Source: Perkinsus chesapeaki (Eukaryota; Perkinsozoa; Perkinsida; Perkinsidae). Taken from it: a stretch of DNA of 39,659 nt. Both the position numbers and the translations under genes were made by a program. Location of the stretch: NCBI GenBank assembly GCA_013115145.1, contig JAAPAO010000325.1, positions 1-39,659 on the forward strand. Reading direction: 5' to 3'. Position 1 is the stretch's first letter. Each line of letters starts with the position of its first letter. Under the pieces are notes generated by a model. That model was given only the letters and a program-made list of their open reading frames with translations, was not told the origin of the DNA and ran no database searches. Below, one piece after another: positions 4,717-38,769 of this stretch.

Positions 4717-4738
4717 AGTGCAAGTTGCACTGTGCAAC
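4717..4738. repeat. Inverted-triplet micro-element (W=AGTGCAAC), exact
   Basis: Reads W(1-7), reverse complement of W, W(2-8) with no mismatch. It is the only exact copy found left of the housekeeping block. Confidence 0.85.
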
Positions 4739-5328
4739 AGCTCGGAAAGGAGGGTCTTCCGAGATGTTTGGCTGAGTACTCGAACTGGGTTTCTCTGAAC
4801 TACGCTTCAGTAGCTACACGACTTTTCGGTCGGTTTTGTCACTTACGTAGTTGATTTACATTCTGTTAGGGCTTCTTCTTAGTTACCGAATATACCGTTA
4901 CAAGTATAAGATCTCGGCCTAGAGTCAGACTCTGAAGTACATGCCGGACTTGAATAATCATAACGGATCGTGGACTCTTCATTCTAGTGTCTGCTCGTGA
5001 ATGAGGGAGTATGTTTCGCAATTATATGTTAAATCAGATGTTTTTTCTCTTCAGTTTTGGGTTGGTCTTCGTCTCTTGTCTACGGCATTAATGCATTACT
5101 ATACTACTACCATTTTGCCTTTTTTCAAACATCGGATGAATGCTACGACTCCCATGTATAGTTTATTTGAGAATGAAAACCATAACACTACAGAAGACGC
5201 GTCACATGCAGAGGCTTATCTTGCATCATTGACAGATTACTTATCGTACACCTTTATTTATTTGTCTCATCGTGTTCTGGATTGCGTGCATTTTGCTCAT
5301 CAGGACAGTTCCCATTCTTCCATTATCA

Positions 5329-6161
5329 ATGCGAGTTTTCCTCCTTATCGCCTGTCTTATCAACACTTCTCATCCATCGTCAGTAAACTCAGTCAAAAAG
5401 TCAGGATTTCGGCAATGGCTGAGGAAGCATTTTCGGCAATCGTCTCCATCCAGCGCCGAACCCCAGCACTTAGCTGAGGAATTTGTCTCAGCTGAGGATC
5501 TTGAGTACAGACCATTGAAGTTTAATGACGTTGATTGGAAGATAGGTGAAAATGATCGTTTTTTTGGAGGGGTGATCAATGGAGGCGGTCAACCAAAGGT
5601 TGGTGTATTCCCAAGTGAAATATTTTAACAACTGATACATTTTAGAATCTAAAAGCAGAAGTTCGGTCAAAACTCTCGGAACGTATCCCTCCAGCGGTGT
5701 TAGATAAGCTGTGATGATGCCCTTGTTATTCGATGGAGTCATGGAAGATCATGTTCACCTTCTTTTAGCCCGGAGAAGACAGAAGAAGATGATGTTGTTT
5801 GTATAACGTGGGTAGAGGTGATGACAGGTTGGAAGAATAAAAAAGTGGGGACTAAGATGTTACCACTTGCATTAAAAGATGTATGTCATCGTCGTCATTA
5901 CCCAGTAACACTATAATGCTACCATTGAGTGTTTCCTACAAGATACGCGTAAAGTGGCCCAAAGCGATAGCAGTGTATTTGAAAGTGAATCCCGAGAACA
6001 AGTATGCTATTAAACTATACGAGAATAACAATTTCACTCGTATATCGGAGCCAAGTAAGAATCTACAAGTCCTAGTAGGGACACATCAGTTTGAAAGTTA
6101 TGGATTGTTAACATATCCTTGCTCGGCTTATCGTATTTCCCCTTCTCTTAGATACAAATGA
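5329..6161 (+). CDS. GNAT-like acetyltransferase with hydrophobic N-terminus, paralogue 2
   Basis: Deduced exons: 5329-5598, 5646-5710, 5769-5880, 5943-6161 (221 aa). Exons 2 and 3 are exactly as long as in paralogue 1 (65 and 112 nt). The N-terminus MRVFLLIACLINTSH is signal-like, followed by a basic linker and the family motif DLEYRPLKFNDVDW. Exon 3 encodes DDVVCITWVEVMTGWKNKK and KMLPLALKD. Exon 4 encodes IRVKWPKAIAVYLKV then NKYAIKLYENNNF, the clearest GNAT motif B (N..A..LYE..NF) of the three. The P-loop position reads KKVGTK, again lacking the last small residue. The frame extends upstream to 5272 and the alternative start MFWIACILLIR is possible. An acceptor-like GGACAG 20 nt before the ATG matches paralogue 1. 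Confidence 0.82.
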
Positions 6162-6820
6162 ATTACTCACATATCTCTATAAATATCCAACATGAAAAGA
6201 TAACCAAAACTTCCCAAGTTACACCGATCACAGTCTGGCTATGAGCGCTAGCACAACTTCGCCATCGGAACAAACCCTCACCAATACACCGTCAGCTTAA
6301 TATAATTACAGATGTCATCATAGGATTTGTCTATGATTCATTTTCAGGTTGTTCTTATAACCCTAGTATCTTCCCAAACAGTCTCATTGACTATAATCCC
6401 GGGACATTATCCTTTTGTCATTTATCACGCACTGTGTATGTTATGCTGTGACTTGTCCATTTATACAACAGTTTTGAGTAACAAGACTGGCACCGTGTGT
6501 TACTCCAGTCGATTTGAGTTTCGAGCGGGTCGGATAACTCTACGATGCTCAAGGCATCATTCTGATCCATGAAGCCCGAGACGCTCATTGCTTGATTGAG
6601 ATAGGTGTTCGGTAAGATTGTTGATGTAGAGAGTTTACAATGTTACCACGAGTGGCGAAATGCATTCCAATAGATGGTATTTCATTTCAAGTTATCGTAC
6701 TCAAGAGATGCTCATAACGTACTTATCTACTGCCACAAAACTCTCACTAATTGTGGGACGTTAGGTATGATTCTTGTTACTAGATCCATCATAACAGCTG
6801 TCATCCTACTATCATTATTA
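6162..6820. other. Intergenic between GNAT-like paralogues 2 and 3
   Basis: About 660 bp with no recognised gene. The ATCATAACAG element lies just upstream of the third paralogue's ATG, at the place of the CATAACAG before paralogue 1, which suggests a shared 5' end architecture. Confidence 0.5.
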
Positions 6821-7508
6821 ATGAAGACGTTCCCTCTTCTCATCATCTGTCTCATCGACATTACTTATGAATTATCGATGAAAGCAATGAAACACCCCAA
6901 GCCGTTGCCTAGGCCCAGGGGGGAGATTGAATACAGAGCAGTAGAAAAGAGTGAAGTACCTTCAACTTGGAACTCCAGGCAACATTATATTATGGCTATA
7001 CCCAAGGGGGGGGGAAGTTCTACAGAGGTATTTGACTTGTATGAAACATGATGACATTGATGATGCAATATTCAGAATGGAGTCGGATTTGTGACATCAA
7101 GCAGGATAAATGTTACATCAGAAATGACAAAGGCGATGTAAGTGTAATGGATCTATAGGGATAATGAACTTATTTTTTTAAGCCCTGACATGAAGGAAGA
7201 CGATACCGTTGTGCTCGTGGATTTGTTAACTTTTCCTGATTGGAGGGATATCGGAGAAGAGCTTTTCTCAGAGGCATTGAAAGATGTATGATAGAGGCAC
7301 CTTTGGTTAGTCTTGATTTATTATTTAGATAAGAAAGGAATGGCCAGAGGTTAGGGCAGTGTTTGTAATGGTTGTTGATGATGAAACTAAAGGAGGCGAA
7401 GAGAGGGAAGTTTATAATCGATATGATTTCAAAGAGATCACTCCTCCAACAAGAAGTAACAGGTGTCTTATTATGCAAGGTTCAGAGCAGTTGATCATTT
7501 TCAGATGA
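6821..7508 (+). CDS. GNAT-like acetyltransferase with hydrophobic N-terminus, paralogue 3 (diverged)
   Basis: Deduced exons: 6821-7027, 7076-7137, 7183-7285, 7329-7508 (183 aa; introns 48, 45 and 43 nt; phases 0, 2, 0 as in the paralogues). N-terminus MKTFPLLIICLIDITYELS; a longer start at 6767 is possible. The linker has GEIEYRAVEKSEV, matching the EYR motif of the others. Exon 3 encodes MKEDDTVVLVDLLTFPDW and ELFSEALKD. Exon 4 opens IRKEWPEVRAVFVMVV and ends in a weak motif B (EVYNRYDF). The P-loop position reads RDIGEE and the NxxA of motif B is gone, so acetyl-CoA binding may be altered or lost. All frames are intact, so it is not an obvious pseudogene. Confidence 0.75.
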
Positions 7509-8013: not shown

Positions 8014-10312
8014 ATGTCTAATATTGAGGATCGTATAGCTGCCCGTCGGAAGAATTATAAAAAGGTAGTACGGCCCTGACTGTTGTTGTTAGTTGTATAT
8101 ATTATTATAGACTGGTGATACTGATGATATTAGACGTAGAAGGGAGGATGAAACAGTACAGATTAGGAAAGCTGAAAAGGAAAAACAATTAGCTCAAAGG
8201 AGAAGGATGAGTATTGGTGGTGATACTAGTGCTGGTCCTAGTAATAATCAATATATATATATATATATTATTAAACACATATTATAATAGGTGGATCCAC
8301 TACTACACCAGTACCTAATCTACAAGAACTTAGTGAGGCTGTTGCTGGATGCAACTCTAATGATCCAGTAGTACAATTTAAAGCTACACAGTATGTTAGA
8401 AAACTATTATCAATAGAAAAGAACCCACCAATTGAATATGTAATATTAATATATATAATATGTATATAACCATAAGTATTAGGTTATAGAGGCCGGCCTT
8501 ATACCGAGAATGGTTGATTTCCTAAAAGATATTAATCGTCCCGATTTACAGTTTGAAGCTGCTTGGGTATTGACTAATATAGCTAGTGGTACTAGAGCAC
8601 AAACTGAGGCAGTTGTATCTGCTGGTAATAATAGTATCTATCATTAAGTACATATTATTATTAAGGTACTATACCTGTCTTTATTGCATTATTATCATCC
8701 CCTAGCCTTGATGTTAAGGAGCAGGCAGTATGGGCTCTTGGTAATATTGCTGGTGATTCCCCACCATTACGTGATACAGTAATAATATATAGCATTGCTG
8801 TATTATTAAGGTAGAAGTTGATAGGTCCTTCAAGCTGGTGTTATGCAACCACTCCTTGCTTTATTAAGGGAGAATGATAAGTTTTCATTATTACGCAATG
8901 CTACCTGGGCATTATCTAACCTATGCCGTGGTAAACCTCAACCACCACTTGAAATGATAGTACATGCTTTACCAACATTGAGTAATCTACTATATAGTAG
9001 TGATGTAATAATAATAATTAGTGTTATAAGGAGTATATTAACCTATTAATAGGTTGAGGTATTAACTGATGCTTGTTGGGCATTATCTTATATATCTGAT
9101 GGTCCTAATGAACGTATTGAAGCTGTTATAGAGAATGGTGTATGTCGTAGATTAGTTGAATTACTTAATCATGATAGTACACTAGTACAGACACCAGCGT
9201 TACGTAATATCAATTATTAATATCATTTAATGATAAAGTGAATAATACTAGGTACTGTTGGTAATATAGTAACAGGAGATGATAGACAGACTCAGGTTAT
9301 AATACAATGTGGTGTGGCTGAGAAACTACATCAGCTTTTATATAGCCCTAAAAAGGTAAGGAATATCATCTACATCATGTGGGGCGGGGGATCGAGTGGT
9401 TGTTCTGATAGAATATACGTAAAGAGGCTTGTTGGACTATATCTAACATTACTGCTGGTAATCGTGAACAAATACAGGAGATAATCAATGCTGGAGTAAT
9501 AATAATAAGTGGAGTAGTAGTAAGGTGATGATGATGATGGTTGTGGTTAGATACCTAGTAAGATAGTTGAGTTAATGGCTACTGCTGAATTTGATATTAA
9601 AAAGGAGGCAGCATGGTAATAGTGTTACAAAAGGGTTGTTGTTGTTTTATAGTGGATATGCTATTATTATATTAGGGCATTATCTAATGCAACTACGGGT
9701 GGATCACCAGAACAAGTGGATTACTTTGTACAAGCAGGATGCATTAAACCATTATGTGCATTACTAGATGTTAATGATACACGTATAGTTGGTGTATGTC
9801 TGGAAGCATTAGAGAATATACTAAGGGTAATAACAATAATAATAATATAATGGGAATTACAATCTAGGTTGGTCTACAAGCAATGGAAGCTAATCCTAAT
9901 CTTACTGAGAATCCGTAAGATTATAAGGCATATTAGTAGCAGTAGTGGTTATATAGGTACCTACAGTTGGTGGAGGAGGCTGATGGTTTAACTAAGATAG
10001 AGAACTTACAATCAGATAGTAGTGATGAGATATATTTAAAGGTAAAAGGAGTGTTATAGATAGGTAAATAGTATTAGTGTTATTAGGCGGTGAGAATATT
10101 GGAAAACTATTTCCCGTTAGAAGGGGACGATGATGAAGTTGAAGATATGGAAGCTTCTGGGAGTGATTCGGCAACTGCACCACCTACTGGTGGTAAAAAT
10201 AATTATATAATATTGTTCCTATACTAGTGCTGTATTATTAGGCTTTAACTTCGGCGGCCCAAGTCCATCTGGCCCACCACCTGGGGGCTTCCAATTTGGT
10301 GGTGGAAACTAG
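8014..10312 (+). CDS. Importin subunit alpha (karyopherin alpha)
   Basis: Nuclear import adaptor: it binds classical nuclear localisation signals through armadillo repeats and importin beta through its N-terminal IBB domain. Deduced exons: 8014-8064, 8111-8240, 8291-8439, 8483-8624, 8666-8778, 8825-9004, 9053-9203, 9252-9355, 9412-9495, 9551-9615, 9676-9826, 9868-9914, 9957-10041, 10087-10192, 10242-10312 (542 aa; introns about 41-60 nt). The IBB region is basic ([24 protein letters not shown]). Arm repeats carry the family words [66 protein letters not shown] and KKEAAWALSNAT. The W/N ladder residues that contact NLS peptides are visible in these. The C-terminus is acidic, then ends in a GFNFGG / GGFQFGGGN tail like that of plant importin alphas. 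Length is normal for the family. Confidence 0.96.
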
Positions 10313-18764: not shown

Positions 18765-20888
18765 ATGATACGTCGTGATTTACCAAAAGGAGCAGCATCA
18801 TCATTATGGCGAAGGCTACCATGGCCTAAATCAACGTTATATACTGCAGTAGACTATTTAGGTGTACCTGGTTTAAGGAAACCTAAAGACTTCCCAACAT
18901 TGGCAACAGATGCTGTTAATGATGCTAAGAATATATTAGGAGCATGGAAAAAGGATGATTCACCTCATAAAGTGGTTAAGATGATTGATGGGGTATCCAA
19001 CTCATTATGTAGAATTGCTGATGCTGCTGAATTAACACGTAATGTACATTCTGATGACAAATGGGTTAAAGAAGCTAGTGAAGCTGTTAATATAGTTGCA
19101 CAGTACATGAGCGAGGCTAATGTTGATAGTGCATTATATGAGAAATGTGTACCTGCTGCTGATAGGGCTGATGATAATGATAGTGGATGCAGTAAAGAGG
19201 AAAAGGACGTAATTAAAGCAATGAGGGAAGCTATGGAGAATGAAGGAGTACATTTAGATGATGATAAGAAAAAGGAATTAATATCACTACAAGAGCAGGA
19301 TGCTGTTAAAAGTTATGAGATAGTTAGCTTTGATGATAGTAATGATCCATTGGATGATGGGCAATGGTTAAGTGTACCACAAGAATGGATGAGTATATTA
19401 AGATTGTTACCTAAGAGGACTATTCATAAAGATGTTACAGAAGTATTCCTACCAAAAGAGCATGCAGCTGTTGGTTACTTATTAAAGGCATGTGAAGATA
19501 CGAGTGTTAGACATAAAGTGTGGAAGTTAACACATAAAGGGGAGCCTAAGAAGGAGAAGGCCTTGAAGGATTTAGTGGCTATTAGACAGAATCTGGCTAA
19601 GATAAGAGGATATGATACATGGAATGAATATGTTATGAGAGAATCTATATTATCTGGTAGTAGTGCAGTTAAAGATTTCCTATCGGAGCTTTGGATTGCA
19701 TTATTACCGGGATTAGAGAGAGAGCTTAGGCTACTTGAAGCTTTAAAGAGGGTACATACTAGTGATCCTAATGCTACCCTAGAACCATGGGATATTGATT
19801 TCTATGTATCTGTATGGAAGCAGACTAATCAACCAGCTGCACTTCAGGAGCTTGGTAGTAATCTATCTATTAATTCACTTATTGAGGGCTCTCAAAGGGT
19901 ATCATCATCAGTATTAAGGGTTAATATGAAAGAGAATATTATTAAAGGTGAAGCATGGAGTTATGATGTTAGAAGGTTTGAATTTAGTGATGCTAAGAAT
20001 AATGACCCTTATGGTATATTATACCTAGACCCTTGTGAGAGGGCATGGAAGAAGGTACAATCAGCACAGTTTACTATAGCAGGTAGTTGTATATTACCTG
20101 ATGGTAGTAGGCAATTACCACGTACTGCTATGGTACTATCTTTACCAGAATTACCAGGAGCATTAGGTCAAGGTGCTGCTACTACATATATGCATGAGTT
20201 TGGTCATGCGGCTCATTCTATATTATCGAGGACTACTTTACAACATTTCAGTGGTTCACGTGGTTGTATTGACTTTGTTGAATTCCCCAGCCATCTGTTT
20301 GAATACTTCGTACTTGACCCTAATGCACTAAGTACGTACATGTTACCGAAACTATCAACCCAAGCTGTAAAAGACTATGGTGATTTCCGTATGGCATTTG
20401 GTCACATAGAGGCAGCTCAACAACTAATATATGCTTTAGTTGATCAAGTCTTCTATGCTCATGGTTATGTTGCTGATGATCTATCACAGTTCTTACCAAA
20501 GTCATCTCATCAGACTACAGTAAGTAATGAACGTTTTATTGAATTGCTAAGTCCACCTGGACAAGCTCAATTCTCTCATCTGGTTCATTATGGTGGTAAT
20601 TATTATTGTTATTTACTATGTAAAGCTGTTGCAGCTGATGTATGGTCACGTGGTGGTTTTGCTGGTAGTAATGATGGTGCTGCTGATCCTATGGCCGGTG
20701 AGAGATTAAGGCATTTCCTGGAAGCTGGTAGTGTTACACAAACTATGGATAAGATATATGAATTAGTTCCTGAGGGACGTATTAAATCATCTAGTACAGC
20801 ATCATCATTAACAGCTGGTCATGTACCATTAGGACCTCTAATGGGGTTATTAAATAGTTGTACTGCAATACATGGTATTAGTAGGTAA
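18765..20888 (+). CDS. MIPEP: Mitochondrial intermediate peptidase (M3 zinc metallopeptidase), intronless
   Basis: A single 707-codon exon. M3 peptidases of this type remove an octapeptide from imported mitochondrial precursors after the main processing peptidase. The zinc site HEFGH is at about residues 477-481, in the context YMHEFGHAAHSILSRT. The third ligand Glu is at about 506, in CIDFVEFPSHLFEYF. The FHEFGH.xHSLLSRT...DFVExPS pattern is characteristic of mitochondrial intermediate peptidase and not of oligopeptidase A or neurolysin. The N-terminus (MIRRDLPKGAASSLWRRLPW) is basic and lacks acidic residues apart from Asp5, as expected for mitochondrial targeting. Length is normal for the family. 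Every other confident gene in the block has introns, so this copy is exceptional. Confidence 0.93.
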   Translation: MIRRDLPKGAASSLWRRLPWPKSTLYTAVDYLGVPGLRKPKDFPTLATDAVNDAKNILGAWKKDDSPHKVVKMIDGVSNSLCRIADAAELTRNVHSDDKWVKEASEAVNIVAQYMSEANVDSALYEKCVPAADRADDNDSGCSKEEKDVIKAMREAMENEGVHLDDDKKKELISLQEQDAVKSYEIVSFDDSNDPLDDGQWLSVPQEWMSILRLLPKRTIHKDVTEVFLPKEHAAVGYLLKACEDTSVRHKVWKLTHKGEPKKEKALKDLVAIRQNLAKIRGYDTWNEYVMRESILSGSSAVKDFLSELWIALLPGLERELRLLEALKRVHTSDPNATLEPWDIDFYVSVWKQTNQPAALQELGSNLSINSLIEGSQRVSSSVLRVNMKENIIKGEAWSYDVRRFEFSDAKNNDPYGILYLDPCERAWKKVQSAQFTIAGSCILPDGSRQLPRTAMVLSLPELPGALGQGAATTYMHEFGHAAHSILSRTTLQHFSGSRGCIDFVEFPSHLFEYFVLDPNALSTYMLPKLSTQAVKDYGDFRMAFGHIEAAQQLIYALVDQVFYAHGYVADDLSQFLPKSSHQTTVSNERFIELLSPPGQAQFSHLVHYGGNYYCYLLCKAVAADVWSRGGFAGSNDGAADPMAGERLRHFLEAGSVTQTMDKIYELVPEGRIKSSSTASSLTAGHVPLGPLMGLLNSCTAIHGISR

Positions 20889-22018: not shown

Positions 22019-25000
22019 ATGTCTCCCATAGTAGATAATAATATGGCTGCTGCTGCTGATGTTAATAGTAGTGAAGTAAATACCATCAATCCTACTGGTG
22101 AACCAGCTCATTATATATGGGAGGTAACACCACCACCACCTACGACAGTACTACTACTGCAAGTACTACGAGTAGTACGATACTCTATATTCCTCTCATT
22201 ACCCACCCTTATCTTCGTATGGTAGTAGCTAGTGGGCCGCCCACATGACAGAAGGTATTCAAATTTCGTGAAATGATTCTAGTTTACCCCATGATGATAG
22301 GAGTTAGTGGTAGGGCGTCGTTTTATTATTTGAGAATTGCTCTATAGTAAATATACTACTAGATAACTTATCCAAGATGGTGGGTAGAAATGTCACACTA
22401 CAAATTTATACAACAACAACAACAAGACTGTAATCTTTATGGTAGGGAGTAACTACTAGCGCTTCAAAACTGGGAAGCATGAGTATTATCGTGTGATGGT
22501 GAAGCTGTTATTGAACTTCTTAGGTACCAGAATATCCACGGGTTGATAGAAACGACGGTATTAAACGATGTTATGTTACCGAAATTGAAATAAATAATTT
22601 CAAGTCATATCATGGGGAACATATGTAGGAAGTAGTATATTATAATATTATATAACCTTTAGAGTACCACTAACAGTACCAGTTAATCCAACAACACAAA
22701 GTGGAGAAGAGCTACCAGTTGATAGTACAGCTGAGGAGGAGGAGGATAGGGTACCATTGGTGCTTACGGGTGTTATTGGTCCTAATGGAAGCGGGAAGAG
22801 TACTATAGAAGTTAGTAGATGATAGGGCTGGACCTAAGTTTAGGTAACCTTCTTGATGCTGTATGCTTTTGTTTATGTGTTGGAGCTAAAAGGCTTAGAA
22901 ATGATAGATTAAAGAGTTTGGTGAATAGTAATCATGTTATGGAATCTGAAGGGGGTAGATGTACAGCGACAGCATCATTAACAGTTAGAATAGAGGAGGA
23001 GCAGGAGAACGATACAGGAAGGTAGGGAGAGTGTTATACCATTAAACGGTAATGTTACTATCAGGATACATACAGTTGATACTACCTTTACTAGATGTGT
23101 TACTACTAATGCTCAACAACATCAACAACACAATAATGAAGATGATGATGGTGGGGTGGTAAGAGGTTCATCATCCTCAACTTACAGAGTTAATGGTAGA
23201 GTATGTACCCAGGGGGAATATAAAGAGGAATTATTAAGGTAAAAGGAGTAGTATTGAAACAGTACTGTTATTATCGGTATTAGGCATCACCTCGATGCTG
23301 ATGCGCCGTTCTTTCTGGTACTACAAGGTCAAATAGATAAGCTACTCTCTAAAGATGATGTAATAAAATGATATAATGTGTTCTTATTATATATAGTATT
23401 TCTATTTTATAGGCTATGTCTATTACTAAAGCAATTGAGTCAGCATCTGGCTCATGGAGATATAAGAAGGATTATGATATAGTATCAAGAAAGAAGTATA
23501 ATGCAGAGGAGAATGTTAATAGATTAATAGGGAAGAGGAAACAGGGTAGGCTGCGGGCTTGGGACTGATCCCTCACTTTAAGAAATAATAGTACACCAGA
23601 GTTTAGCGGGGTAAGTTATACAGTATGATGATGTTGTTGTTAGTTAATCAAGAATTACAAGCACTTACTGCACAAGTACAGGAAGCTGATAGATATAAAG
23701 AAAAGAAGGCTGAATTAGATAAGAAGCAAATTGATAAAATAACATATAGTTTATATGAGATAGAAAAGGTGATACTATAAATAAAGGGGGTGTCGTTATA
23801 GTAGTGTAAAATGTTAGGAAGTTGATGGGTTACTAGAGTCTAGTGAGGGACTATTAGAGGATTATGAAGATGTAAAAGCATCTGTACAGGAGGCTAAGAT
23901 ACGACAGGCGAATGCGGGCAGTGAAAGAAAGAAGATTAATCAGGAATATCAAAGACTGGAGAAAAAGTAAACCGTTCTGTTGTTGTTGTTGTTGTTGGTG
24001 GTGGTGGTTGGAGATGTTGATAGGTTGGATAAAGTACGGAGGAAGAAGGATGAAGTGGAGATTACATTAGCGGAGACCCGAGGGAAGAGGAAAGAACTGG
24101 TAGGTGGTTGTAATAATGATATTGAACAAGACATAGTAGGTTAATAGTGAGGAGAAGGTAAATAGGAATATTGATATTAGTCGGGGTAAAGTGGAGGCAT
24201 TAGAGAATACAATAAATGGTATAGTTATTAAAGTGGGCGAGGTAGGAGTAGTAGTAGGTATCATTGGTACTAAATTGAATTATATTAATATAGCTTGATG
24301 AAGCCATGGAGGAGGTTAATACGCGACGTAGTAATGTGGATAATGATATCGGAGGAGGAGGGATATTGACGGATGATATCATACAAGAATGTCAAGTTGT
24401 GAATGAGAAGGCTGAAGAGGTTGCTGGTAGGTTGGGGTGGTGGTGATTGGTGATGAGGGGATTGGTTATTGTTCAGCATCTATTGAAAGCTCCTTGAAAG
24501 TATGTAAAGAACAGAAGGCTTTACTTAGCCAATCGATTAAGGATGGTAAAGCTAATATAAGGCGATTGGAGGAGGCTAAGGGTGTTAGACAACAAGAGTT
24601 AGAGGATGTGGAGGATAAACTTAATAACCTACAAGAGCAACTACATGATAGAGAGGGCAATCTGGCGGAGGAAAGGAGACAGTATAAGGAAAGGACCGAT
24701 GCAAGAGCGATTGTGGTGGGTGAAATCGAGGAGGCTAAAAGTGAACGGAGAAAGGTTGCGGAGGAGTTATCATCAATGAGGGCTGCTAATAGGGAATATG
24801 ATAGAGCAGCTAAACTAAGGGGAAATGTATTAAGTGATGGTTATGTATGGAATAAATTGTAGTTTAGGTTGAGCAGCTTATAAAGGAGACCTCCGCTAGG
24901 CGGCATGATATATCTACTCATCGATCGTTGAATGATGGTGGTATGAGAGATGGTATGATTATTGGTTTAGTATCAGATTTGGTACAGCCATCGAATAAGA

Positions 25001-28000
25001 AATATACATCAGCTATAAAGGCAGCTATTGGCAGACAACATTTAGAGGCAGTAGTAGTTGGTAATAAAGATGATGCTATAAGATGTATTAAATGGTTAAA
25101 GGATAAGAGGATACCACCAATGACATTCTTACCTATACAAGTGAGTAGTAATATTAACTACATTATACACAATAATATCTATTTTTACTATGAGTTGCTA
25201 AGGCGTTGTTTTGCGCTTCTATTATTCTCATTGAGGGAATAATAATTTTATTACTATTATCATGTCTAAGTTCATTTCATCAGGATATGGAGTTACCAGG
25301 ATTGTTATTAAGTAAGGATGACATACCGGCTAATTCAGGATTACATCGGGCATTGGATTGTGTTAAGGCTGTTAATCAAAGTCATGTAATAAACTAATGT
25401 CAATACTATTCATTAGTAGTAGTATAGATACCAACCCATCTTGATGTATCATATATATCTAATAATACAGTTATACAACTTATACAGAAAGTACATGATT
25501 GGTTATTAGGAAAGACAGTAGTAGCAGATACCTTATCACAGGTAGTAAAAGGTGCTATCATTCAAAAGCTATGTCTGTATCCTACCAGGCTAGATCTGTA
25601 CTATATCGTAGTGGTAGGAGAAAGTCTCCTGTTATGTTATCGGGTATTAAAGCTGTTACATTAGATGGTGATAAGATAGCTAAGAATGGTAATATGAGTA
25701 ATGGTAGTCAGGGAGGAGTGGGGCGGGGGCGGGATGGAGATATATGGGATGCGCAAAGAGAAGTAGGAGGCAGCGGTAGATCAGCTCTTTTATGTTGATA
25801 TATAACAACTCATAGGTTGCTATGCTAGAAGGGAATGTAAAGCAAAAGGATAATGATATTATACTACTTGAAAGGAGACTTGAGGAGTTTAGAGACATAA
25901 TAGAAAGAGGAGGAGGAGGGGATGATGTCAATGAGGGAGTGGATCCTGAAACGGAGGTAGTACGGTAGTTGGATAATATTGGTAGTCTTATTAGATGCTT
26001 AAATCGGATATAGGATGTTTAAAGGAGGAAAAGGAGGCTATTGAGAAAGAGTAAGGTTAGAAGGGTTAATGATGATGTGGTATACTTGTATGATGATCGT
26101 AGGATCAATCGTATAATAGATATGATAGAAGCTGGTCGTAAGAACTTGGATGAAATAGAAATACAACATGACGAGGCTACCAATCGTATAAAGGAGTTGG
26201 AAGTAGAGCTTAGTGATAGGACTAGAAGCTTCTTTGAGGATATTAATAAAAGAATATTCGGTGATAACAATGATGTTAATGAGAAGGATGTGGTAGGTTT
26301 GGCATTCATTCGGTGAGATATGTAATTGTGTTTAACAGATGTCATTAATAAGGCAACGTAATGAGACAATGGATAAGATAGAGAGGGATGAACGTTTACT
26401 TAAACAACAAAAGGCTGTGATTGATGGAGAGCGACAGGCCTTATTTGGAGATGTACACTTGTTATTAATTGTTGTTGTTATTCTTGGTTTTATTCAGCTC
26501 GAACGTTTGAAGGAGACTTTGAGTGGATATGAATCACATATTGAGAAGATACAAGAAGCTATTGGAGAGCTGAACAATAAAGAGCAGAAGTTGATGTCTG
26601 AGATAGCTGAAGGAGAGACGATAGAGGAGCTTGAAGAGGCTGTAGCTCAGGCAGCTGCAAAGAAGGAAACATCAACAAGAGAATGTACAGCAACGTCATA
26701 GATAAACAGTGGTAAACAGTGTATAGGTGATGAGGCTAATAATGTGTTAAAGGAAAGGCTTGATCGATGTAATGCAACAAAGACTGCAGTTTCTAAGGAA
26801 GAGCATAGATTACAGCAACTGCGGTATCATCATATGCAACTAGTAGTGTGCTGATATTGCTGACACATTGTGCTGATCAATATACTCATCCATTTTAGGT
26901 GAGGTCACTTTTATCGAGGCAAAGAGAACAACAAGATATATTGAACACACAAGATGAAGAGCTACAAAGGCTACCGTTCGAGAATGCCGAGGATGCCCTT
27001 CCTGACCTCAAAAGAATCTTATTTGAAGAGGATGATACAGATGAAGGCACACAAGATACTTTGGATAAATATGATGCTCTGGAATTGAGGGTTGATGAAG
27101 GACTTATTGGAAGGATATTATCGGAGAGTTCATCTAGGAGGGGTACACGAGCAGGAGCGAAGGAAGTTATTGCTATACTGGATGTTGAAATAGAAAGACT
27201 ACAGGAATCACTAAGCCATTTAAAGCCTAACCTCAGAGCATATCAGCGACATGAGGAGATGAAATTGGTAACGATGTACTTATACGTGACTGGTCAACAG
27301 AGTTTTACAATGTAGGTTTTGAATGATGTTATTCGTAGGATAGAGAGTGCCAAGTTGGAGGCAACTGAGATTGGACAACATTTTGAAGCATTAAAGAATG
27401 CTAGAAAGGCCAGGTATGTATGTGTAGCTATCGACGAGGTATATGTATCATAGATTCAATGAATGTTATCATTTCGTGCGAGAGTCTGTCATGTCCTACT
27501 ATCGAGAGTTAACCTTACGAAATGCTGATGGTGGTGGCTCACAAATATCTGATGATGGACCATTTACTCCTGATGCAGCAGCAGGAGGTGGTAGACGACG
27601 ACGGAGAGAAGGACAAGAGAGTCATGAAACAAGTGGATCTGTGTATTTAGATGCTGAGAATGTGGATGAACCGTGAGAATAATAATAACAACAGAATCGT
27701 GTTCTCTGAAAGGGATCATCTCTTAGGTATCTTGGTGTTATACAATTCTCTGCTCATCCAGAGAGTGATCGATTTGTTGATAGCAATTTACTATCCGGTG
27801 GAGAGAAGACCATAGCTGCAACAGCTCTCTTGTTCGCCCTGTTCGCCTGGCAGAGGCCAGCACTTGTACGTATTTAAGTGCCGTTGCAAGCTTATATTTC
27901 GATGCTCAGTAGAATGTACCACACTTCCTGGTTTAGGTACTACTCGATGAAATTGATGCCGCCTTGGATCGGCGTAATTTGGCCACATTGTGTAGATTCG

Positions 28001-29631: not shown

Positions 29632-30835
29632 TACCCATAATTGACAACACTTCACTGTTAGAGCATAGATGTTAAATTCCCGACGCTAGTAGCTTGAACT
29701 ACTGCGATTGTATAGAAATATGCTCTGATAAAAAGGATGCTGCAACAAAGGCTTGGTTTTATCTTGGATTCACTTGGCATACCAAACGCAGTCAATGGTG
29801 AGGCTCCCATCAAGAACGCAACGCATGCCTATTGGACACTTCTTGAAATACTGAAAAATGACATGCTTTCGAAATGATTACACTATGGAAAATCCTACCG
29901 CACAGCCTAAACGACAGAGACCATCGTTACCACAATATTGGTTGGCATTCCCATTGGGCGGGCCCGGACAATCAGAATTGCGTGAACATGCTTCACTGCA
30001 GAAGCATACGAGTGTATCGTATCCTACCACGTCCAATACTGGATACCAGCCGGGCTGACAACTACAACCGCTTCCGTCACAGTGACCAACTGGCTCCGCA
30101 TAAGGAACTGATTAAGAAAACTGGCTTACATAAATTCGCTGAATACAGGATACTTGCGATTTTCAGAGGCAGTTCTCCATACCTGTGGGCGGCTGGGTCA
30201 TGGTGGTCATATTGGTACCTCCGGGCCCCTCTTCGGAGTTCATCCTGATCGAGAAGATACTTCAAGTCCATCAAAGAGGCATACTACTTTTGCATACTAC
30301 TTATTTCCTCTAAACTACTGCCGAAGCTTCCTAGAATGCTGATGATGAGAATGATTCTCATAGTATACGTCATACTACTATAGCAGCCGACATGAATGTA
30401 TACGACCGAGCAAGATAATTAGATAATAGTTAATTATCGTCTATTACTGGCAGTCAGTTCCTGACTAGAACGAGGCAAATGGTCACAAGGTTGCACACTG
30501 CCGCTTACACAGCAGGTGCCTGAATAACAGCGTGATGCTGCAATGACAATCCAAGATTGGAGATGCTTAATTTGGATTAACTTGCAAGTGAGTACACGGA
30601 AAGAATGCAGAAGGGGCTTTAGCTCACCGATCGCCTTTGTGACTTCGGAGATGTCACAGACTGAAGCGTGCACATCGTGCAGCACATTTAGTGGTGGCGT
30701 TGTCGTGGGTCCAGAGTGCCTACAAACTTACCAGGTCAGTTATAAACAATAAAGCCTGCAAGTTTACCCAGCATGGTGATCTTCGAACATCGGTCCTGGG
30801 TGAAGTCAATGAAAGAGTTTGCACCTGGTGACACA

Positions 30836-30857
30836 GTATTGAGTCAATACTATTGAC
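30836..30857. repeat. Inverted-triplet micro-element (W=GTATTGAC), exact
   Basis: W(1-7), reverse complement of W, W(2-8) without mismatch, inside duplication copy A. Confidence 0.85.
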
Positions 30858-31749: not shown

Positions 31750-31771
31750 GTAGCGAATAGCTACTAGCTAT
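31750..31771. repeat. Inverted-triplet micro-element (W=GTAGCTAT), one mismatch
   Basis: W(1-7) has one substitution (GTAGCGA); the reverse complement and W(2-8) are intact. The core TAGCTA is itself palindromic, which lowers confidence. Confidence 0.55.
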
Positions 31772-31896: not shown

Positions 31897-31951
31897 GGAT
31901 GTCAGAATCTAACAGTTTGATTCCTGACGCTAGTAGCTTGAACTACTGCGA

Positions 31952-31975
31952 TTGTATACTATATACAATGTATAG
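31952..31975. repeat. Inverted-triplet micro-element (W=TTGTATAG) with 2 extra bases; absent from copy A
   Basis: Same structure with an added TA in the central arm, probably later dinucleotide slippage. Copy A has a single TTGTATAG at about 29709. Confidence 0.7.
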
Positions 31976-32919
31976 AAATATCCTCTCATAAAAAGGCTTC
32001 CATTGCAACAAAGGCTTGATTTTATCTTGGATTCACTTGCCGTACCAAATGCAGTCAATGGTGAAGCTCCAATCAAGAACGCAGTGCATGCCTATTGGAC
32101 ATGTCTTGAAATGCTGAGAAGTGGCATGCTTTCGGAATGATTACACTTTCGAGAAACTTACTGCACAGCCTAAACGACAGTAACCATCGTTATCACAATA
32201 TTGGTTGGCGTTGCCGTTGGGTGGTCCCGGACAATCAGAATTGCGTGAACATGTTACACTGCAGAAGCATACGAGTGTATCGGACCCTACCACGTCGCAT
32301 ACTGGATACCAGCCGGGCGAACAAAAGCAACCGCTTGTTCTACAGTGACCAACTGGCTCCGCATAAGGAACTGATTAAGAACACTGGCTTACATAAATTC
32401 GCTGAATACAGGATACTTGCGATTTTCAGAGGCAGTTCTCCATACCTGTGGGCGGCTGAGTCATGGTGGTCATATTGGTACCTCCGGGCCCCTCTTCGGA
32501 GTTCATCCTGAAAAAAGATACTTCAAGTCCTTCAGAGAGGCGTACTACTTTCGCGTATGGTTTCCCTCCAAACTAATACCGAAGCTTCCTAGGATGTTGA
32601 TGATGAGAATGAATCTCCAAGTGTACGTCATACTACTATAGCAGCCGACATGAATGTATACGACCGAGAAAGATAATTAGTAATTGCCAGTTACGGTATT
32701 TTTCTGACTAGAGGGAGGCAAAATTTCACTCGTTAGCACAGTGCCACTTGCACCGAAGGTGAATGACAGCGAGATCCTAACATAACAATCGTAGGATGGA
32801 CGTGCCGGAGTTCGAATAAATTGCCATGGACACGCGGATACAGTACAGTGGTGGCTTTAGCTTACCGACCACCCCCGTGACTCAAGTGATGTCACAGACT
32901 AACACGTAGACATTGTGCA

Positions 32920-32941
32920 ATGCAGATCAATGATCTGCATG
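32920..32941. repeat. 10-bp perfect inverted repeat, 1-nt spacer
   Basis: ATGCAGATCA, one base, TGATCTGCAT, followed three bases later by ATGCAG again. It resembles a longer-armed relative of the micro-element. Copy A lacks it near 30680. Confidence 0.75.
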
Positions 32942-33080
32942 ACATGCAGTGCAGTTGCTGGTGGCATCGTCGTTTGTCCACCCTGCCTACAAGCCTACCA
33001 ACGGTAGACAAAAACCTGCGAGTGTATCAAGCATGGTGATCTTCGACCGCCGGTTCTCAGGACCGAGTCCTGGAGTCCAG

Positions 33081-33261: not shown

Positions 33262-33283
33262 CTGAGGAACCCTCAGTGAGGGT
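33262..33283. repeat. Inverted-triplet micro-element (W=CTGAGGGT), one mismatch
   Basis: The first arm reads CTGAGGA instead of CTGAGGG; the reverse complement and W(2-8) are exact. Confidence 0.65.
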
Positions 33284-33613: not shown

Positions 33614-33635
33614 GTCAAGGGCCTTGACTCAAGGC
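33614..33635. repeat. Inverted-triplet micro-element (W=GTCAAGGC), exact
   Basis: W(1-7), reverse complement of W, W(2-8) with no mismatch. Confidence 0.85.
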
Positions 33636-33657: not shown

Positions 33658-33679
33658 GATACGAATCGTATCATACGAA
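33658..33679. repeat. Inverted-triplet micro-element (W=GATACGAA), one mismatch
   Basis: Only 23 bp after the previous element. The three 6-nt arms are exact; the first base of the central 8-mer is A where T is expected. Confidence 0.8.
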
Positions 33680-33790: not shown

Positions 33791-33830
33791 CAAGGAAGGC
33801 TTTCTCACGATGATCGTGAGAAAGCTTTCC
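33791..33830. repeat. Long hairpin, about 19-bp stem
   Basis: AGGAAGGCTTTCTCACGAT pairs with ATCGTGAGAAAGCTTTCCT with one mismatch and a loop of about 2 nt. ATCGTGA and CACGATC recur just downstream. Confidence 0.85.
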
Positions 33831-34148
33831 TGATCGTGACACGATCGAGATCCCACAGTTAAGCGCACGCTTCTGACCATCCTGCATGTACGACAATATA
33901 AAGTCATTTTCGAGCAGTCAAAAGGTCATGTTTCACGTGTTGGCCATGCTAAGCCACCAGCGGTGGAGCCCAAGGATCGCGGAGTGCTTGAGCTAGCCAT
34001 ACTAGCTCTTCTTGCAGGCAAAAGCGCGTCTCAGCAATCAGTAGCGGAGAAATCCGCAAGGCGTCATAGATAGCACTATTGCCCCTCCCGAAGGGGCAAT
34101 ATTGCTTACGAAGTAGCTCTAAGCGCTGGTATCTCCTTAGTATCTAGC

Positions 34149-34170
34149 ACTGTGAGTCACAGTCTGTGAC
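34149..34170. repeat. Inverted-triplet micro-element (W=ACTGTGAC), exact
   Basis: W(1-7), reverse complement of W, W(2-8) with no mismatch. An outer GCACTGT/ACAGTGC pairing flanks it. Confidence 0.85.
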
Positions 34171-35328: not shown

Positions 35329-35562
35329 TGGCGGTACACCCGTCTATCAGGTTCTCTATGACTTTCCTATGATTTGTCTTAAAAAAATTGTGTTTTGAGT
35401 TGAGTAGATTCGGATACATGGTAACCACATAAAGCTCTAATGTTGCTACGGGCCGTTGCCTACGTCACACAGTCTTCTCAACTCGGCTCACTGTCTTGCA
35501 ATACCGGTTCATAGTGATTCACAGATTGTGTTATGCTCACTCTGGTAGGTGACCGCCTGCTA

Positions 35563-35768
35563 GGTGGATATCAGTAGGGAACTGAAAAGTACGAGCGACT
35601 TTCGGGTACTCCGTTGGATCCAGTTGAAGTTTCGTCAGTTCTAAATCTTATGTCGAATCCACCAACGTGAAGCTATATTCATTGAAGCACCGCATGGGTG
35701 GTGCAGAGCTCGCGTACATTGAAGCACTCAAATATGCGTTAGAAGGTCTGCTTGCTCTGTTTTTTATT
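35563..35768 (+). repeat. Dispersed segment, copy 1 (no palindrome)
   Basis: About 206 bp nearly identical to 38482-38738. Apart from a few substitutions, the copies differ by a 51-bp insertion in the other copy that creates two overlapping perfect palindromes. This copy shows the form without the insertion. Confidence 0.92.
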
Positions 35769-35811
35769 GCCATTATGAAGTTTGCAGTTGACGTTTAGTG
35801 GCGGTCTAGGA

Positions 35812-35952
35812 ATGTCTGGTAATTCGAGTTCTACTCGGCGTACCCGGCCGTATGCTGCTCTTCACAACTTGAGACCTCATGAGTTGTCCCAACATTTCAG
35901 GGAGAAGGAGAAGCACCAGAAAGGGTGGTGGAACATGTGTTCCGGATACTAG
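35812..35952 (+). CDS. Small unrecognised basic ORF
   Basis: 46 codons from an ATG, compositionally coding: MSGNSSSTRRTRPYAALHNL, then a charged segment HFREKEKHQKGWWN. It may be a first exon, since no longer frame follows. No family recognised. It lies between the dispersed segment and the duplicated small-gene segment. Confidence 0.35.
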   Translation: MSGNSSSTRRTRPYAALHNLRPHELSQHFREKEKHQKGWWNMCSGY

Positions 35953-36228
35953 GTTGGAATATGTCTTTCATACAATATGAGTATTTGCTGAGAGGGTTTT
36001 GCAGGATGCTCCTGGAGGTACCAAGGTTGTTAGTTTTCGACAATGATGTAGTTATAGCGGGAACGGAAAGGGACGACTCGCTGTAGGTATGAGTATACGC
36101 CTCACGTTTCCGTTTTTGTTCAGATATCTCGATAATGTACTCATTCTGGGAAAAGTTCTCTGCGGGCACTATCAGTTTCACGCACTCGTCTTGTTTTACT
36201 CGTACTTCAGCAACTCCTCCTTCCACGG

Positions 36229-36250
36229 TTATGTCCGACATAATATGTCG
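36229..36250. repeat. Inverted-triplet micro-element (W=TTATGTCG), exact; empty site at 39465-39472
   Basis: The paralogous segment carries only W. The 14-bp gain duplicates an ATG, placing a new out-of-frame ATG 14 bp before the one used by the small plus-strand gene, and shifts the minus-strand frame. Confidence 0.93.
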
Positions 36251-36553
36251 AGTCCGTCTACAACTGCGGGCACTCAGTTAAGTCTGAGGTGGTTTCACTC
36301 CAGCGTTACCGCGGAGTACTATTTCGTAGGTATAAATGATGATATTGAAGTTACCCTATGGGCATTCTTAACTGTTTGATGAAGAATCTTCATTGAAGAT
36401 GCATCGGTTGACGGAGGTAGCTCAGAGACAGATGATGAAGATCTTCGTTACTACTATTTACAAGGTTCAAGTGATGGCGAAGAATTGGTAATTACCGGGG
36501 AAAACTCATGCCCGTTAACTGGCGAGAAGAGAAGATTATGCCGAGTGTTGTAA
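36245..36553 (+). CDS. Small unrecognised acidic protein, two exons
   Basis: Deduced exons 36245-36329 and 36399-36553 (79 aa). The 69-nt intron is 55 nt in the second copy; the difference is exactly the 14-bp micro-element at its 3' end. Protein: MSSPSTTAGTQLSLRWFHS, then AEYYFV joined to DASVDGGSSETDDEDLRYY, then a tail with CPLTGEKRRLC. The acidic stretch is conserved in the second copy. No family recognised. The opposite strand also has a conserved frame, so which strand is coding is not settled. Confidence 0.45.
36379..36400. repeat. Inverted-triplet micro-element (W=ATGAAGAT), exact; empty site at 39600-39607
   Basis: It spans the predicted 3' splice site of the small gene and repeats its GAAG|AT boundary, so splicing may still work with a 14-nt longer intron. 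The second copy has a single W. Confidence 0.93.
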
Positions 36554-36564: not shown

Positions 36565-36586
36565 GATAAAACTTTTATCATAAAAG
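36565..36586. repeat. Inverted-triplet micro-element (W=GATAAAAG), exact
   Basis: W(1-7), reverse complement of W, W(2-8) with no mismatch, about 12 bp after the small gene's stop codon. Confidence 0.85.
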
Positions 36587-36978: not shown

Positions 36979-37000
36979 GAGGGGAGTCCCCTCAGGGGAC
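36979..37000. repeat. Inverted-triplet micro-element (W=GAGGGGAC), exact
   Basis: W(1-7), reverse complement of W, W(2-8) with no mismatch. A CAGGGG/CCCCTG pair with a 1-nt spacer overlaps its right end. Confidence 0.85.
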
Positions 37001-37170
37001 CCCTGTTCGTACAGTTATTGTACTGTCCCTTCCACTGTTCTACGGGACAGTATTTGCATTCTCGCTCGCCCTATAACATAAGTATCTCGCTCGCCCGAGC
37101 TAGTTCGTGCACACTATTATAAATACATATAAATAAACTCTCCATATCTCTACCTTCTGTTGTGTCACTC

Positions 37171-37801
37171 ATGTCCGACAACGAGTATATGTTTGACTGT
37201 GGACGTAAGTGCGACTGTGTAGTGATATTGTTTAAAGTATTCTTGATTTAGCGAAAACGGGAGGGGAAACCCTAGTTGACGAGGCTGTCGCGGACCATCC
37301 TCTTGTGCAATCGCTGGGATCCCGGGCGAGAAGGCGTGTTAAGTTAACTTCTGGCCGATCTAAAGTGAATATTCTTTAGGCATGTAAAGTAAGATTCGTG
37401 AGAATTTAGGTTCTCTCCCCTCTCTCCTCTTCTGCTGCTCCTAGTAAGTTACCGGAGGTGAAATTAAAACAGGTAGTGAAGTGTTTGTGCACCATCTGGG
37501 TATATCGAGTAGGTATCTCGTAATCCGGGAGTAAAGGCCACGAGGGGTATAACTCAAGTGGATGACGACAGTATCGCTGTCGAGGAAGGGGGCAACTCGT
37601 GTCGGAGTGGTAAGGTACAAGTTCTTGGTTCCTCCTAGTATTGAGATCTCTGTATGGCAGTTGCCTGAGGACGGAGTTGTGCCAACCCATGCCGTCTACG
37701 ACGGGATTCCATTGGTACGCTTTATGGTTGACGATTGTAGGAAGTTTGTTGTTAGCCTAAGCGGAGGTATGGAAGCTCTACTGGGATGTATGGCACGATA
37801 G
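37171..37801 (+). CDS. Possible multi-exon gene, unrecognised
   Basis: ATG 37171 opens MSDNEYMFDCG, followed by a donor GTAAGT. The next candidate exon starts near 37252 and reads TGGETLVDEAVADHPLVQS, then LGSRARRRVKLTSGRSK, ending at a GT about 37370. A third candidate begins near 37411 after an ATTTAG. Further right, 37562-37801 is open in one frame (VGVVRYKFLVPPSIEISVW, QLPEDGVVPTHAVYDGIPL) and 37546-37610 in another (QVDDDSIAVEEGGNSC), so exon choice is unresolved. No family recognised. Confidence 0.35.
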
Positions 37802-38481
37802 CATCGGTAAGACTCGGGTAGCCTGGTTTACTGTTAGCTTGTTGTGAAAGGGTCAAGATTGAAGCTGAGATGTTGGAGATGTCATGCTGTGTACTATGTT
37901 GGTTCTGTGTTTCGAGATGATAAACGTGATTTTTAGTTGGACTTTGTGTGAGGGAATAAGTGACACTACGGTACTGGTATTAGTAATAAAATACATCGCC
38001 AATTGGGTGTTTGGGGGTAAGTGTAAAACAAGAAACCTGGAGACTTCCGAAAATGGAATGCTCAGACTGAGCAGCTCAGTATGGGAACACAAAACAAGCA
38101 CTGCTCCAGAAATACTGATATATCTAGCTCAATTGGAATCCTCACCTTAACGGAGAGCTTGGGTGTGCGTTCGTTAAAAGTTATACTTACCGTAGTATAT
38201 ATTGACTTGAACATTCCGGATTACTCTATTACTTTTGACGGTCAAAGACACCTAAGGTACACAAGTAGCTTTGGGAGGTCTTACAAAGTGTACATCCAAC
38301 TTGCCTGGTTATTTTTCTCCACAACGGATGATGACGCATCCAGGTTCCTTCGGTTACTCGGTTTTACCGGTATCGTGCCATTGCTGTTGTCGTTGATGTC
38401 GTTGGGGTTGCTTTCGTTGTCGTTATTGTAGTCCACGGTGGCGGTGTCCGTGGTTGAGCCGCGGTTAGTTGGTTGACGCTG
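37802..38481. other. No gene recognised
   Basis: Several short overlapping frames with no supporting motif. The micro-element at 38059-38080 is the only structured feature. A G/T-rich TTGTCGTTG simple repeat lies near 38388-38430. Confidence 0.4.
38059..38080. repeat. Inverted-triplet micro-element (W=TGCTCAGT), exact
   Basis: W(1-7), reverse complement of W, W(2-8) with no mismatch. Confidence 0.85.
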
Positions 38482-38738
38482 GGTGGACATCAGTAGGGAA
38501 CTGAAAAGTACGAGCGACTTTCGGGTACTCCGCCGGATCCAGTTGAAGTTTCGTCAGTTCTAAATCTTATGTTGAATCCACCGACGTGAAGCTATATTCA
38601 TTGAAGCACCGCATGGGTGGTGCACTGCACCACCCATGCGGTGCTTCAATGTACGCGAGCTCTGCACCAGGTGCAGAGCTCGCGTACATTGAAGCACTCA
38701 AATATGCGTTAGAAGATCTGCTTGCTCTGTTTTTTATT
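38482..38738 (+). repeat. Dispersed segment, copy 2 (with 51-bp palindromic insertion)
   Basis: Second copy of 35563-35768, offset 2919 bp before the insertion and 2970 bp after it. Confidence 0.92.
38599..38697. repeat. Two overlapping perfect palindromes
   Basis: Arm 38599-38624 pairs perfectly (26 bp) with 38626-38651 across one base. Arm 38641-38668 pairs perfectly (28 bp) with 38670-38697 across one base. The palindromes share GTGCTTCAATG. The layout is arm, inverted arm, arm, like a large version of the 22-bp micro-elements. Copy 1 at 35680 lacks the 51 inserted bases. Confidence 0.95.
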
Positions 38739-38747
38739 TCCTCATAC

Positions 38748-38769
38748 CACTAGACTCTAGTGACTAGAG
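38748..38769. repeat. Inverted-triplet micro-element (W=CACTAGAG), exact
   Basis: W(1-7), reverse complement of W, W(2-8) with no mismatch, just after the dispersed segment ends. Confidence 0.85.

What the first reader, a model, noticed from the sequence alone, without database searches (positions are those of the whole stretch)
4717..38769. A 22-bp inverted-triplet micro-element of fixed geometry, repeated with a different word each time
At 4717, 30836, 31875, 33614, 34149, 36229, 36379, 36565, 36979, 38059 and 38748 the DNA reads exactly W(1-7), reverse complement of W, W(2-8), where W is an 8-bp word that differs at every site. Sites at 33658, 33262 and 31750 fit with one mismatch, 31952 with two extra bases and 487 with one base missing. 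Fourteen positions are fixed by the rule, so with equal base frequencies about 4^-14 per start is expected, far below one in the window. Sequence is not conserved; only geometry is. Ordinary repeat finders that look for shared sequence would miss it.
Basis: seen in the sequence. Interest (0 to 1): 0.93.

Follow-up and report, generated by a model that had tools for sequence, protein, structure and literature searches.

The report
Fixed-shape scars of departed hAT transposons
The odd 22-letter pattern is best read as the scar left where a cut-and-paste jumping gene of the hAT kind left the DNA of a shellfish parasite and the cell rejoined the two hairpin-capped ends by pairing the duplicated target letters; the kind of scar is known, but such a uniform and abundant set of them is unusual.

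Summary
All 11 exact sites and the five near-matches are present. The pattern is specific to 8-letter words: 11 sites in the window against 0-2 for each length 5-7 and 9-20. In 298 kb of the same genome there are 59 exact sites, all with different words; other lengths (5-14) give 0-8. The genome is Perkinsus chesapeaki, 35.4 Mb assembled.

The pattern is not a micro-element. It is the excision footprint of an 8-bp-duplicating, flank-hairpin transposon, best explained as hAT. Five scars have paralogous copies that carry the 8-bp word once and are exactly 14 bp shorter. The words follow nTnnnnAn, the Hermes/hAT target. Palindromes centred on one unpaired base, the hAT hairpin signature, are strongly enriched, and some arms continue up to 21 nt beyond the word. 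If hairpins open far from the tip, the two 3' tails are always complementary over the duplicated 8 bp. Annealing them gives exactly 7+8+7.

New are the abundance, the dominant uniform product and the scarcity of donors: only fragmentary hAT copies and no filled site were found.

The parts
4717..4738 (.). standard 22-bp footprint, W=AGTGCAAC
30836..30857 (.). standard 22-bp footprint, W=GTATTGAC, read as nested in an older mutated footprint (W about GTATTRAG) that runs on to about 30871; 28 bp longer than empty copies in L034 and L038
31875..31896 (.). standard 22-bp footprint, W=CGGAGCAT
33614..33635 (.). standard 22-bp footprint, W=GTCAAGGC
34149..34170 (.). standard 22-bp footprint, W=ACTGTGAC
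36229..36250 (.). standard 22-bp footprint, W=TTATGTCG; empty copy near window 39458 has W once
36379..36400 (.). standard 22-bp footprint, W=ATGAAGAT; empty copies near window 39596 and L031 1574
36565..36586 (.). standard 22-bp footprint, W=GATAAAAG
36979..37000 (.). standard 22-bp footprint, W=GAGGGGAC
38059..38080 (.). standard 22-bp footprint, W=TGCTCAGT; empty copy near L031 822
38748..38769 (.). standard 22-bp footprint, W=CACTAGAG
31750..31771 (.). footprint with one mismatch, W=GTAGCTAT
33262..33283 (.). footprint with one mismatch, W=CTGAGGGT
33658..33679 (.). footprint with one mismatch, between its 8th and its last base, W=GATACGAT
31952..31975 (.). footprint with two extra bases (TA), W=TTGTATAG; empty copy near window 29702 (16 bp shorter)
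489..509 (.). footprint lacking one base, W=ATTGTGTT
1738..1769 (.). long-tail footprint, W=TTCATCTG, left tail 12 nt, right tail 7 nt, overlap 1 nt
33805..33846 (.). long-tail footprint, W=TCACGATC, left tail 14 nt, right tail 8 nt, 6-nt filler
38618..38676 (.). long-tail footprint, W=TGGTGCAG, tails 27 and 29 nt overlapping by 11 nt; empty copy near window 35692. Full palindromes 38599-38651 and 38641-38697
38876..38910 (.). long-tail footprint, W=GATTGAAC, left tail 14 nt, right tail 6 nt, 1-nt filler

Best explanation
Each site is a healed excision scar of a cut-and-paste DNA transposon of the hAT type. (1) The element inserted at an 8-bp target W (preference nTnnnnAn) and duplicated it. 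(2) On excision the transposase nicked one nucleotide outside each end and sealed each flank as a hairpin, so the left flank runs W1-7 straight into the complement of W8, and the right flank is the mirror image. (3) A host nuclease opened the hairpins at or beyond the far side of the duplication, leaving 3' tails of 8 to about 29 nt. (4) Both flanks carry W, so the tails are always complementary over 8 nt. They annealed there, flaps were trimmed and gaps filled, giving exactly W(1-7)+rc(W)+W(2-8), a net gain of 14 bp. (5) Where another microhomology or filler was used, longer palindromic scars formed. Shown here: empty and scarred copies of the same site, the target preference, the one-base centre, palindromes that continue beyond the word into the flank, and the base relations expected of 3' tails. 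Inferred: that hairpins formed, that the element was hAT, which nuclease opened the hairpins, and that elements once sat at these sites.
For: Empty sites: 5 distinct exact scars have a paralogous copy exactly 14 bp shorter with W once: window 36229, 36379, 38059, L015 1313, L031 1123. Insert lengths among paralogs: 16 at 14 bp, none at 13 or 15 (9 at 12, 6 at 16). Target: T at W2 in 32 of 59 and A at W7 in 36 of 59, pooled p=4e-12; the Hermes hAT preference is nTnnnnAn with 8-bp duplications (PMC10368747, passages). One-base centre: one-base-loop palindromes with arms of 10 or more number 27, against 0-4 at each other loop size from 0 to 12 and 0 at that loop size in one shuffle. Published Ds (hAT) footprints have palindromes centred on the complement of the base bordering the element, with arms up to 20 nt in yeast (PMC5873905, passages). 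Polarity: of 48 core sites, 39 have both centre bases complementary to the outer copy, 8 have one of the two, 1 has neither, and none has both 'same' as 5' tails would give. Long tails: 17 rows, 15 distinct, with tails of up to 29 nt including the 8-bp word; 0 in one shuffle. At 38618 the 27- and 29-nt tails overlap by 11 nt and the empty copy at 35692 carries W once. hAT domains: 7 PF05699 places (6 over cut-off), 2 PF14291 places, one of them the same copy.
Against: No intact donor and no filled site was found. The hAT matches are fragmentary, with no convincing terminal repeats plus 8-bp duplication. Searches for 8-bp duplications with terminal repeats show no peak at the expected offset. 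The classic short hAT footprint (one extra base per side) is not in excess: 6 against 7 in one shuffle. Ten of the 16 14-bp gaps are not clean footprint/empty pairs (diverged alignments, some of them repeated readings of one place). Of 232 7-1-7 palindromes 164 have no W(2-8) within 70 nt; about 52 of these should be the right halves of standard scars, the rest (about 110, against 10 palindromes in a shuffle) are decayed, one-sided or unexplained.
Confidence: 0.88

Rival explanations
1. Another DNA transposon superfamily with 8-bp duplications (Merlin, P, Zisupton/KDZ; the last two recalled) made the scars.
For: Merlin ORFs and remnants are reported in Perkinsus marinus, and Merlin has 8-9 bp duplications (PMC8101967, passages). 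Donors were not found here.
Against: The one-base-offset palindrome and the nTnnnnAn target fit hAT. Merlin's DDE_Tnp_IS1595 domain gives one match below cut-off in the whole genome, against 7 hAT dimerisation-domain places. P and KDZ were not searched for.
Confidence: 0.07
2. Replication template switching: a polymerase folds back and returns twice, writing an inverted copy.
For: It can create inverted micro-copies (recalled).
Against: It predicts a spread of word and loop lengths. Here only 8-bp words and one-base centres stand out, the words have a transposase-like target preference, and the outer words duplicate 8 bp of the empty site.
Confidence: 0.02
3. A self-propagating micro-element like the double-hairpin elements of fungal mitochondria (recalled).
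For: Two overlapping hairpins; small size.
Against: All 59 exact sites have different words, so no sequence is shared; every base follows from the target.
Confidence: 0.01
4. Assembly error or chance.
For: Draft assembly of 884 contigs.
Against: 0 exact hits in 100 Markov windows, and a graded decay of 59, 46 and 51 sites with 0, 1 and 2 mismatches, which errors would not be expected to show.
Confidence: 0.01

Closest known systems
Ac/Ds (hAT) excision footprints in plants, yeast and Candida
   Same: P-nucleotide palindromes centred on the complement of the base bordering the element, explained by flank hairpins; arms up to 20 nt in S. cerevisiae (PMC5873905, passages).
   Different: Candida: 28 footprint types in 128 clones, the two commonest 35 and 18 clones, longest P insertion 3 nt. 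Here one 22-bp product dominates among recognisable scars, tails reach 29 nt, and the scars are natural, many and of different ages.
Hermes (hAT)
   Same: 8-bp duplication and nTnnnnAn target (PMC10368747, passages).
   Different: No complete element was identified in this genome.
TcBuster (hAT)
   Same: 8-bp duplication; hairpin-type footprints (PMC3499496, passages).
   Different: Target consensus nnnTAnnn, which the words here do not show.
Coding joints of V(D)J recombination with long P nucleotides (recalled)
   Same: Hairpin-capped ends, palindromic inserts (recalled).
   Different: No duplicated target word and no one-base offset (recalled).
Introner elements of Amoebophrya
   Same: Alveolate, with direct and inverted repeats (PMC7789003, passages).
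   Different: Direct repeats of 3-5 nt around full introns; not a 22-bp scar.

Membership tests
hAT excision footprint | 8-bp target duplication; empty site has the word once | tested here: met
   5 distinct exact scars with an empty paralog exactly 14 bp shorter; most of the 59 have no paralog in the sample
hAT excision footprint | palindrome centred on the complement of the base next to the element (one-base offset) | tested here: met
   feature as described in PMC5873905, passage
hAT excision footprint | Ac/Hermes-type target preference nTnnnnAn | tested here: met
   T2 32/59, A7 36/59, p=4e-12; PMC10368747 passage for Hermes
hAT excision footprint | P-nucleotide tails can run beyond the duplication into the flank | tested here: met
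   13 of 15 distinct variant rows have a tail over 8 nt; 0 such rows in one shuffle
hAT excision footprint | hAT transposase coding in the genome | tested here: met
   PF05699 at 7 places (6 over cut-off), PF14291 at 2; no full-length frame seen in the loci read, introns not excluded
hAT excision footprint | complete donor with terminal repeats and 8-bp duplication, or a filled site | tested here: not met
   none found in about 300 kb or around the two hAT copies at C379 and C354; the rest of the 35.4 Mb was not read
hAT excision footprint | excision seen to occur | not testable with these tools
   needs reads or experiments
Merlin | DDE_Tnp_IS1595 transposase | tested here: not met
   one match below the curated cut-off
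TcBuster-type hAT | target nnnTAnnn | tested here: not met
   W4 T 31 of 118, W5 A 31 of 118, both strands pooled: no excess
double-hairpin elements | conserved sequence between copies (recalled) | tested here: not met
   59 different words in 59 sites

The most novel reading that the evidence does not exclude
The scars far outnumber their donors because excision in this lineage is routine or programmed, carried out by a resident or domesticated hAT-like transposase, so the assembly shows mostly post-excision DNA. (A special case of the best explanation.)
Probability: 0.07. Interest if true: 0.9.

Novelty: new variant of a known kind. Interest (0 to 1): 0.62.

Why it matters
A short sequence-free rule lets anyone count past hAT-type excisions in a genome even after the elements have gone, which finders that look for shared sequence would miss. 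If the reading is right, the scars record the hairpin-opening distance, the tail polarity and the choice of microhomology for dozens of natural events in 0.3 Mb, and probably thousands genome-wide. That makes a question usually studied with reporter assays readable from evolution: how hosts open transposon hairpins. The explanation of the uniform product is testable: the duplicated target guarantees 8 nt of complementarity between the tails. The mismatch between many scars and few donors is itself a question about transposon life cycles in Perkinsus.

Tried and rejected
Short footprints (observed against one block shuffle): one extra base per side 6 against 7; no extra base 347 against 84 (probably 7-bp tandem repeats, not checked); (0,1) and (1,0) 25 and 11 against 13 and 19; (0,3) and (3,0) 10 and 5 against 1 and 1; (1,2) 4 against 0. 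The last ones were not followed up. 5'-tail form: 0 of 48. Donor search by 8-bp duplication plus terminal repeats: 3 weak candidates at 11 of 14 matches and 14 at 9 of 12 against 1 in one shuffle; but no peak at the correct offset (14 at offset 0, 17 at -1 and -2), with 2-5 in five further shuffles, so rejected. hAT copies at C379 and C354: fragmentary, no convincing ends. A repeat family with about 50-bp terminal inverted repeats (L015 9466 on; L047-L049) was examined as donor: by eye no 8-bp duplication at the three fetched copies. Ku: one match over cut-off, with 3 stops inside the stretch, so loss of NHEJ is not supported as the reason for the uniform product. A DRMBL (Pso2/Artemis-type) domain is present, one place over cut-off. 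PF14372: no match, and no control genome rang either. Rfam and tRNA scans of the window: none. Large insertions between paralogs in L015 (406 and 5361 bp) show no 8-bp duplication by eye. Paper searches found no description of such scars in Perkinsus: 'Perkinsus'+'excision footprint' 0 papers; listings only, apart from the passages cited. One search opened an unrelated paper by mistake. The footprint study behind the yeast figures (Lazarow 2012) was not seen; its numbers are as quoted in PMC5873905.
Full report
WHAT WAS CLAIMED AND WHAT IS THERE. All 11 are present at the stated coordinates and there are no others in the window. Word lengths 5, 6 and 7 give 2, 0 and 1; lengths 9-20 give none. 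At word length 8, changing the number of letters missing from the outer arms leaves 0 or 1. Neither 5 shuffles nor 100 Markov copies of the window contain one exact site.

WHERE IT IS. The window is contig C252 of a 35.4 Mb genome in 884 contigs. A hAT-like open frame on contig C379 (107,349 bases) is 100% identical over 73% of its length to a Perkinsus chesapeaki protein whose contig is recorded with the same length, so the genome is that of P. chesapeaki, a protist parasite of clams and oysters (host recalled). The window's M3 peptidase is 82% identical to a P. olseni protein.

HOW COMMON. Twenty 10-kb stretches (19 contig starts and the next 10 kb of C1) hold 20 exact sites in 182.5 kb of read sequence. 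If representative, that is about 3,900 exact sites in the genome; contig starts and strong clumping make this rough (L015 alone has 7; 11 of the 20 stretches have none). The de-duplicated set of 38 records (298,009 bases, 280,535 not N) holds 59 exact sites with 59 different words; k=5, 6 and 7 give 8, 0 and 2, and k=9-14 give 0. This set includes the window and loci fetched because they held hAT domains or repeats near scars, so it is not a random sample. Sites with 1, 2 and 3 mismatches number 46, 51 and 89 against a Markov mean of 0, 0.6 and 10.4: scars of many ages.

EMPTY SITES. The window and loci contain diverged duplicate segments. Among paralog alignments (36 records, 287 kb) insert lengths show 16 events of 14 bp and none of 13 or 15, with 9 of 12 bp and 6 of 16 bp. 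Five distinct exact scars have an empty copy, exactly 14 bp shorter, reading W once: window 36229 and 36379 (empty near 39458 and 39596; 36379 also in L031), 38059 (L031), L015 1313 and L031 1123; these make 6 of the 16 rows. The other 10 rows are in diverged alignments and are not clean pairs. Site 31952 is 16 bp longer than its empty copy, with one extra TA in a TA-rich word. Site 30836 is 28 bp longer than its empty copies, which I read as two successive scars: an older, mutated one and a newer exact one in its first part. So the process adds 14 bp to an 8-bp target, and seems able to strike the same place again.

THE WORD IS A TARGET. Over 59 sites, T stands at W2 in 32 and A at W7 in 36 (p=4e-12); counted on both strands, 68 of 118 letters at each of these two positions. 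This is nTnnnnAn, the target preference of the hAT transposon Hermes, which makes 8-bp duplications (PMC10368747, passages). The TcBuster preference nnnTAnnn (PMC3499496, passages) is not seen.

THE HAIRPIN SIGNATURE. The 22-mer is two overlapping 7-1-7 palindromes. Palindromes with exactly one central base are enriched at every arm length: 120, 53 and 14 with arms of 7, 8 and 9, and 27 with arms of 10 or more. Other loop sizes from 0 to 12 give 7-19, 1-6, 0-4 and 0-4; one shuffle gives 6, 2, 0 and 0 at loop 1 (low-complexity arms left out; L033 and L034 overlap, so a few short ones are counted twice). Of 232 7-1-7 palindromes, 52 are followed directly by W(2-8), 16 more have it 9-52 nt later, and 164 have none within 70 nt (one shuffle gave 10 palindromes, none continued). 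About 52 of the 164 should be right halves of standard scars; the rest are decayed, one-sided or unexplained. Decomposition gave 51 standard scars and 17 rows (15 distinct: L033/L034 are one place, L031 335 appears twice) in which W1-7 is followed by a reverse-complement copy of word and left flank and W2-8 is preceded by one of word and right flank; one shuffle gave 0 and 0. One of the 15 is 31952, the TA variant, and the two L026 rows share their right end. The longest tails are 25-29 nt, that is 17-21 nt beyond the 8-bp word: window 38618, L028 2201, L031 2893, L002 1437. At 38618 the 27-nt and 29-nt tails overlap by 11 nt with no filler, and the empty copy at 35692 reads TGGTGCAG once. Other rows have 1-36 nt that neither tail explains. 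In L031 a one-sided palindrome (998-1032) has as its centre the complement of the base that follows in the unscarred window copy.

MECHANISM. hAT transposases are held to nick one base outside the element and to form hairpins on the flanks (recalled; the hairpin-centred footprints of Ds are described in PMC5873905, passages). The left flank strand then reads W1-7 followed by the complement of W8, W7 and so on; the right flank is its mirror. Opening with 3' tails of 8 nt or more leaves two tails that are complementary over exactly the duplicated 8 bp. Annealing gives W(1-7)+rc(W)+W(2-8). With 5' tails the two centre bases would instead equal W8 and W1: of 48 core sites (window and L002-L028, low-complexity cores left out) none has both of these, 39 have both complementary bases, 8 have one, 1 has neither. 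Longer tails with other microhomologies, or filler, give the longer variants. The fixed geometry is therefore set by the target duplication and needs no special element. That last step is inference.

WHAT IS MISSING. No filled site or intact donor was found. The genome search gave 7 places for the hAT dimerisation domain (6 over cut-off) and 2 for DUF4371, one of them the same copy at C379. In the loci read they are short frames without recognisable ends; introns could hide a longer gene. Scans for 8-bp duplications with terminal repeats in about 264-298 kb found nothing offset-specific. A repeat family with 50-bp terminal repeats showed no 8-bp duplication by eye at 3 copies. Merlin gave one sub-threshold match. 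The donors may be unassembled, lost, or too diverged.

HOST FACTORS. One Ku match over cut-off, with 3 stops inside the stretch, and one DRMBL (Pso2/SNM1/Artemis-type) match were found, so parts of end joining and hairpin processing may be present; which enzyme acts is unknown.

VERDICT. Real and far from chance; a scar, not an element. It works like a hAT excision footprint, and it meets every sequence feature of that class that I tested except one: a donor or filled site. The dominant uniform product and the abundance make it a new variant of a known kind. I found no earlier description for Perkinsus in the library searched (listings only).

Noticed in passing
window 1-245: Array of 5.3 copies of a 46-bp unit, with further matching sequence near 4252-4489.
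   Followed up: no
window 18765-20888 (+): Single open frame of 707 aa, peptidase family M3, 82% identical to P. olseni FOZ60_009801.
   Followed up: partly
window 24431-27315 (+): Probable exons of an SMC-family protein; SMC hinge domain in 24868-25242.
   Followed up: no
window about 29676-30600 and 31900-32950; about 35559-36500 and 38478-39659: Two pairs of diverged duplicate segments; they supply several of the empty sites. No Pfam match in the open frames tested there.
   Followed up: partly
L015 9466-9618, L047, L048, L049: Repeat family with about 50-bp terminal inverted repeats starting near CTACAGCATTTCCCG, about 195-290 bp in the three fetched copies; duplication length unclear.
   Followed up: partly
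L015 about 8522-8626: Another repeat, matches of 61-95 bp on 11 other contigs, three of them at the first bases of a contig.
   Followed up: no
L031 998-1032: One-sided palindrome with arms of 17 nt, and about 78 bp of the right flank missing against window 37806-37884: hairpin opening on one side and deletion on the other is one reading.
   Followed up: partly
L006, L009, L018: Runs of N (8147, 7963 and 1364 bases in all): gaps or withheld stretches.
   Followed up: no
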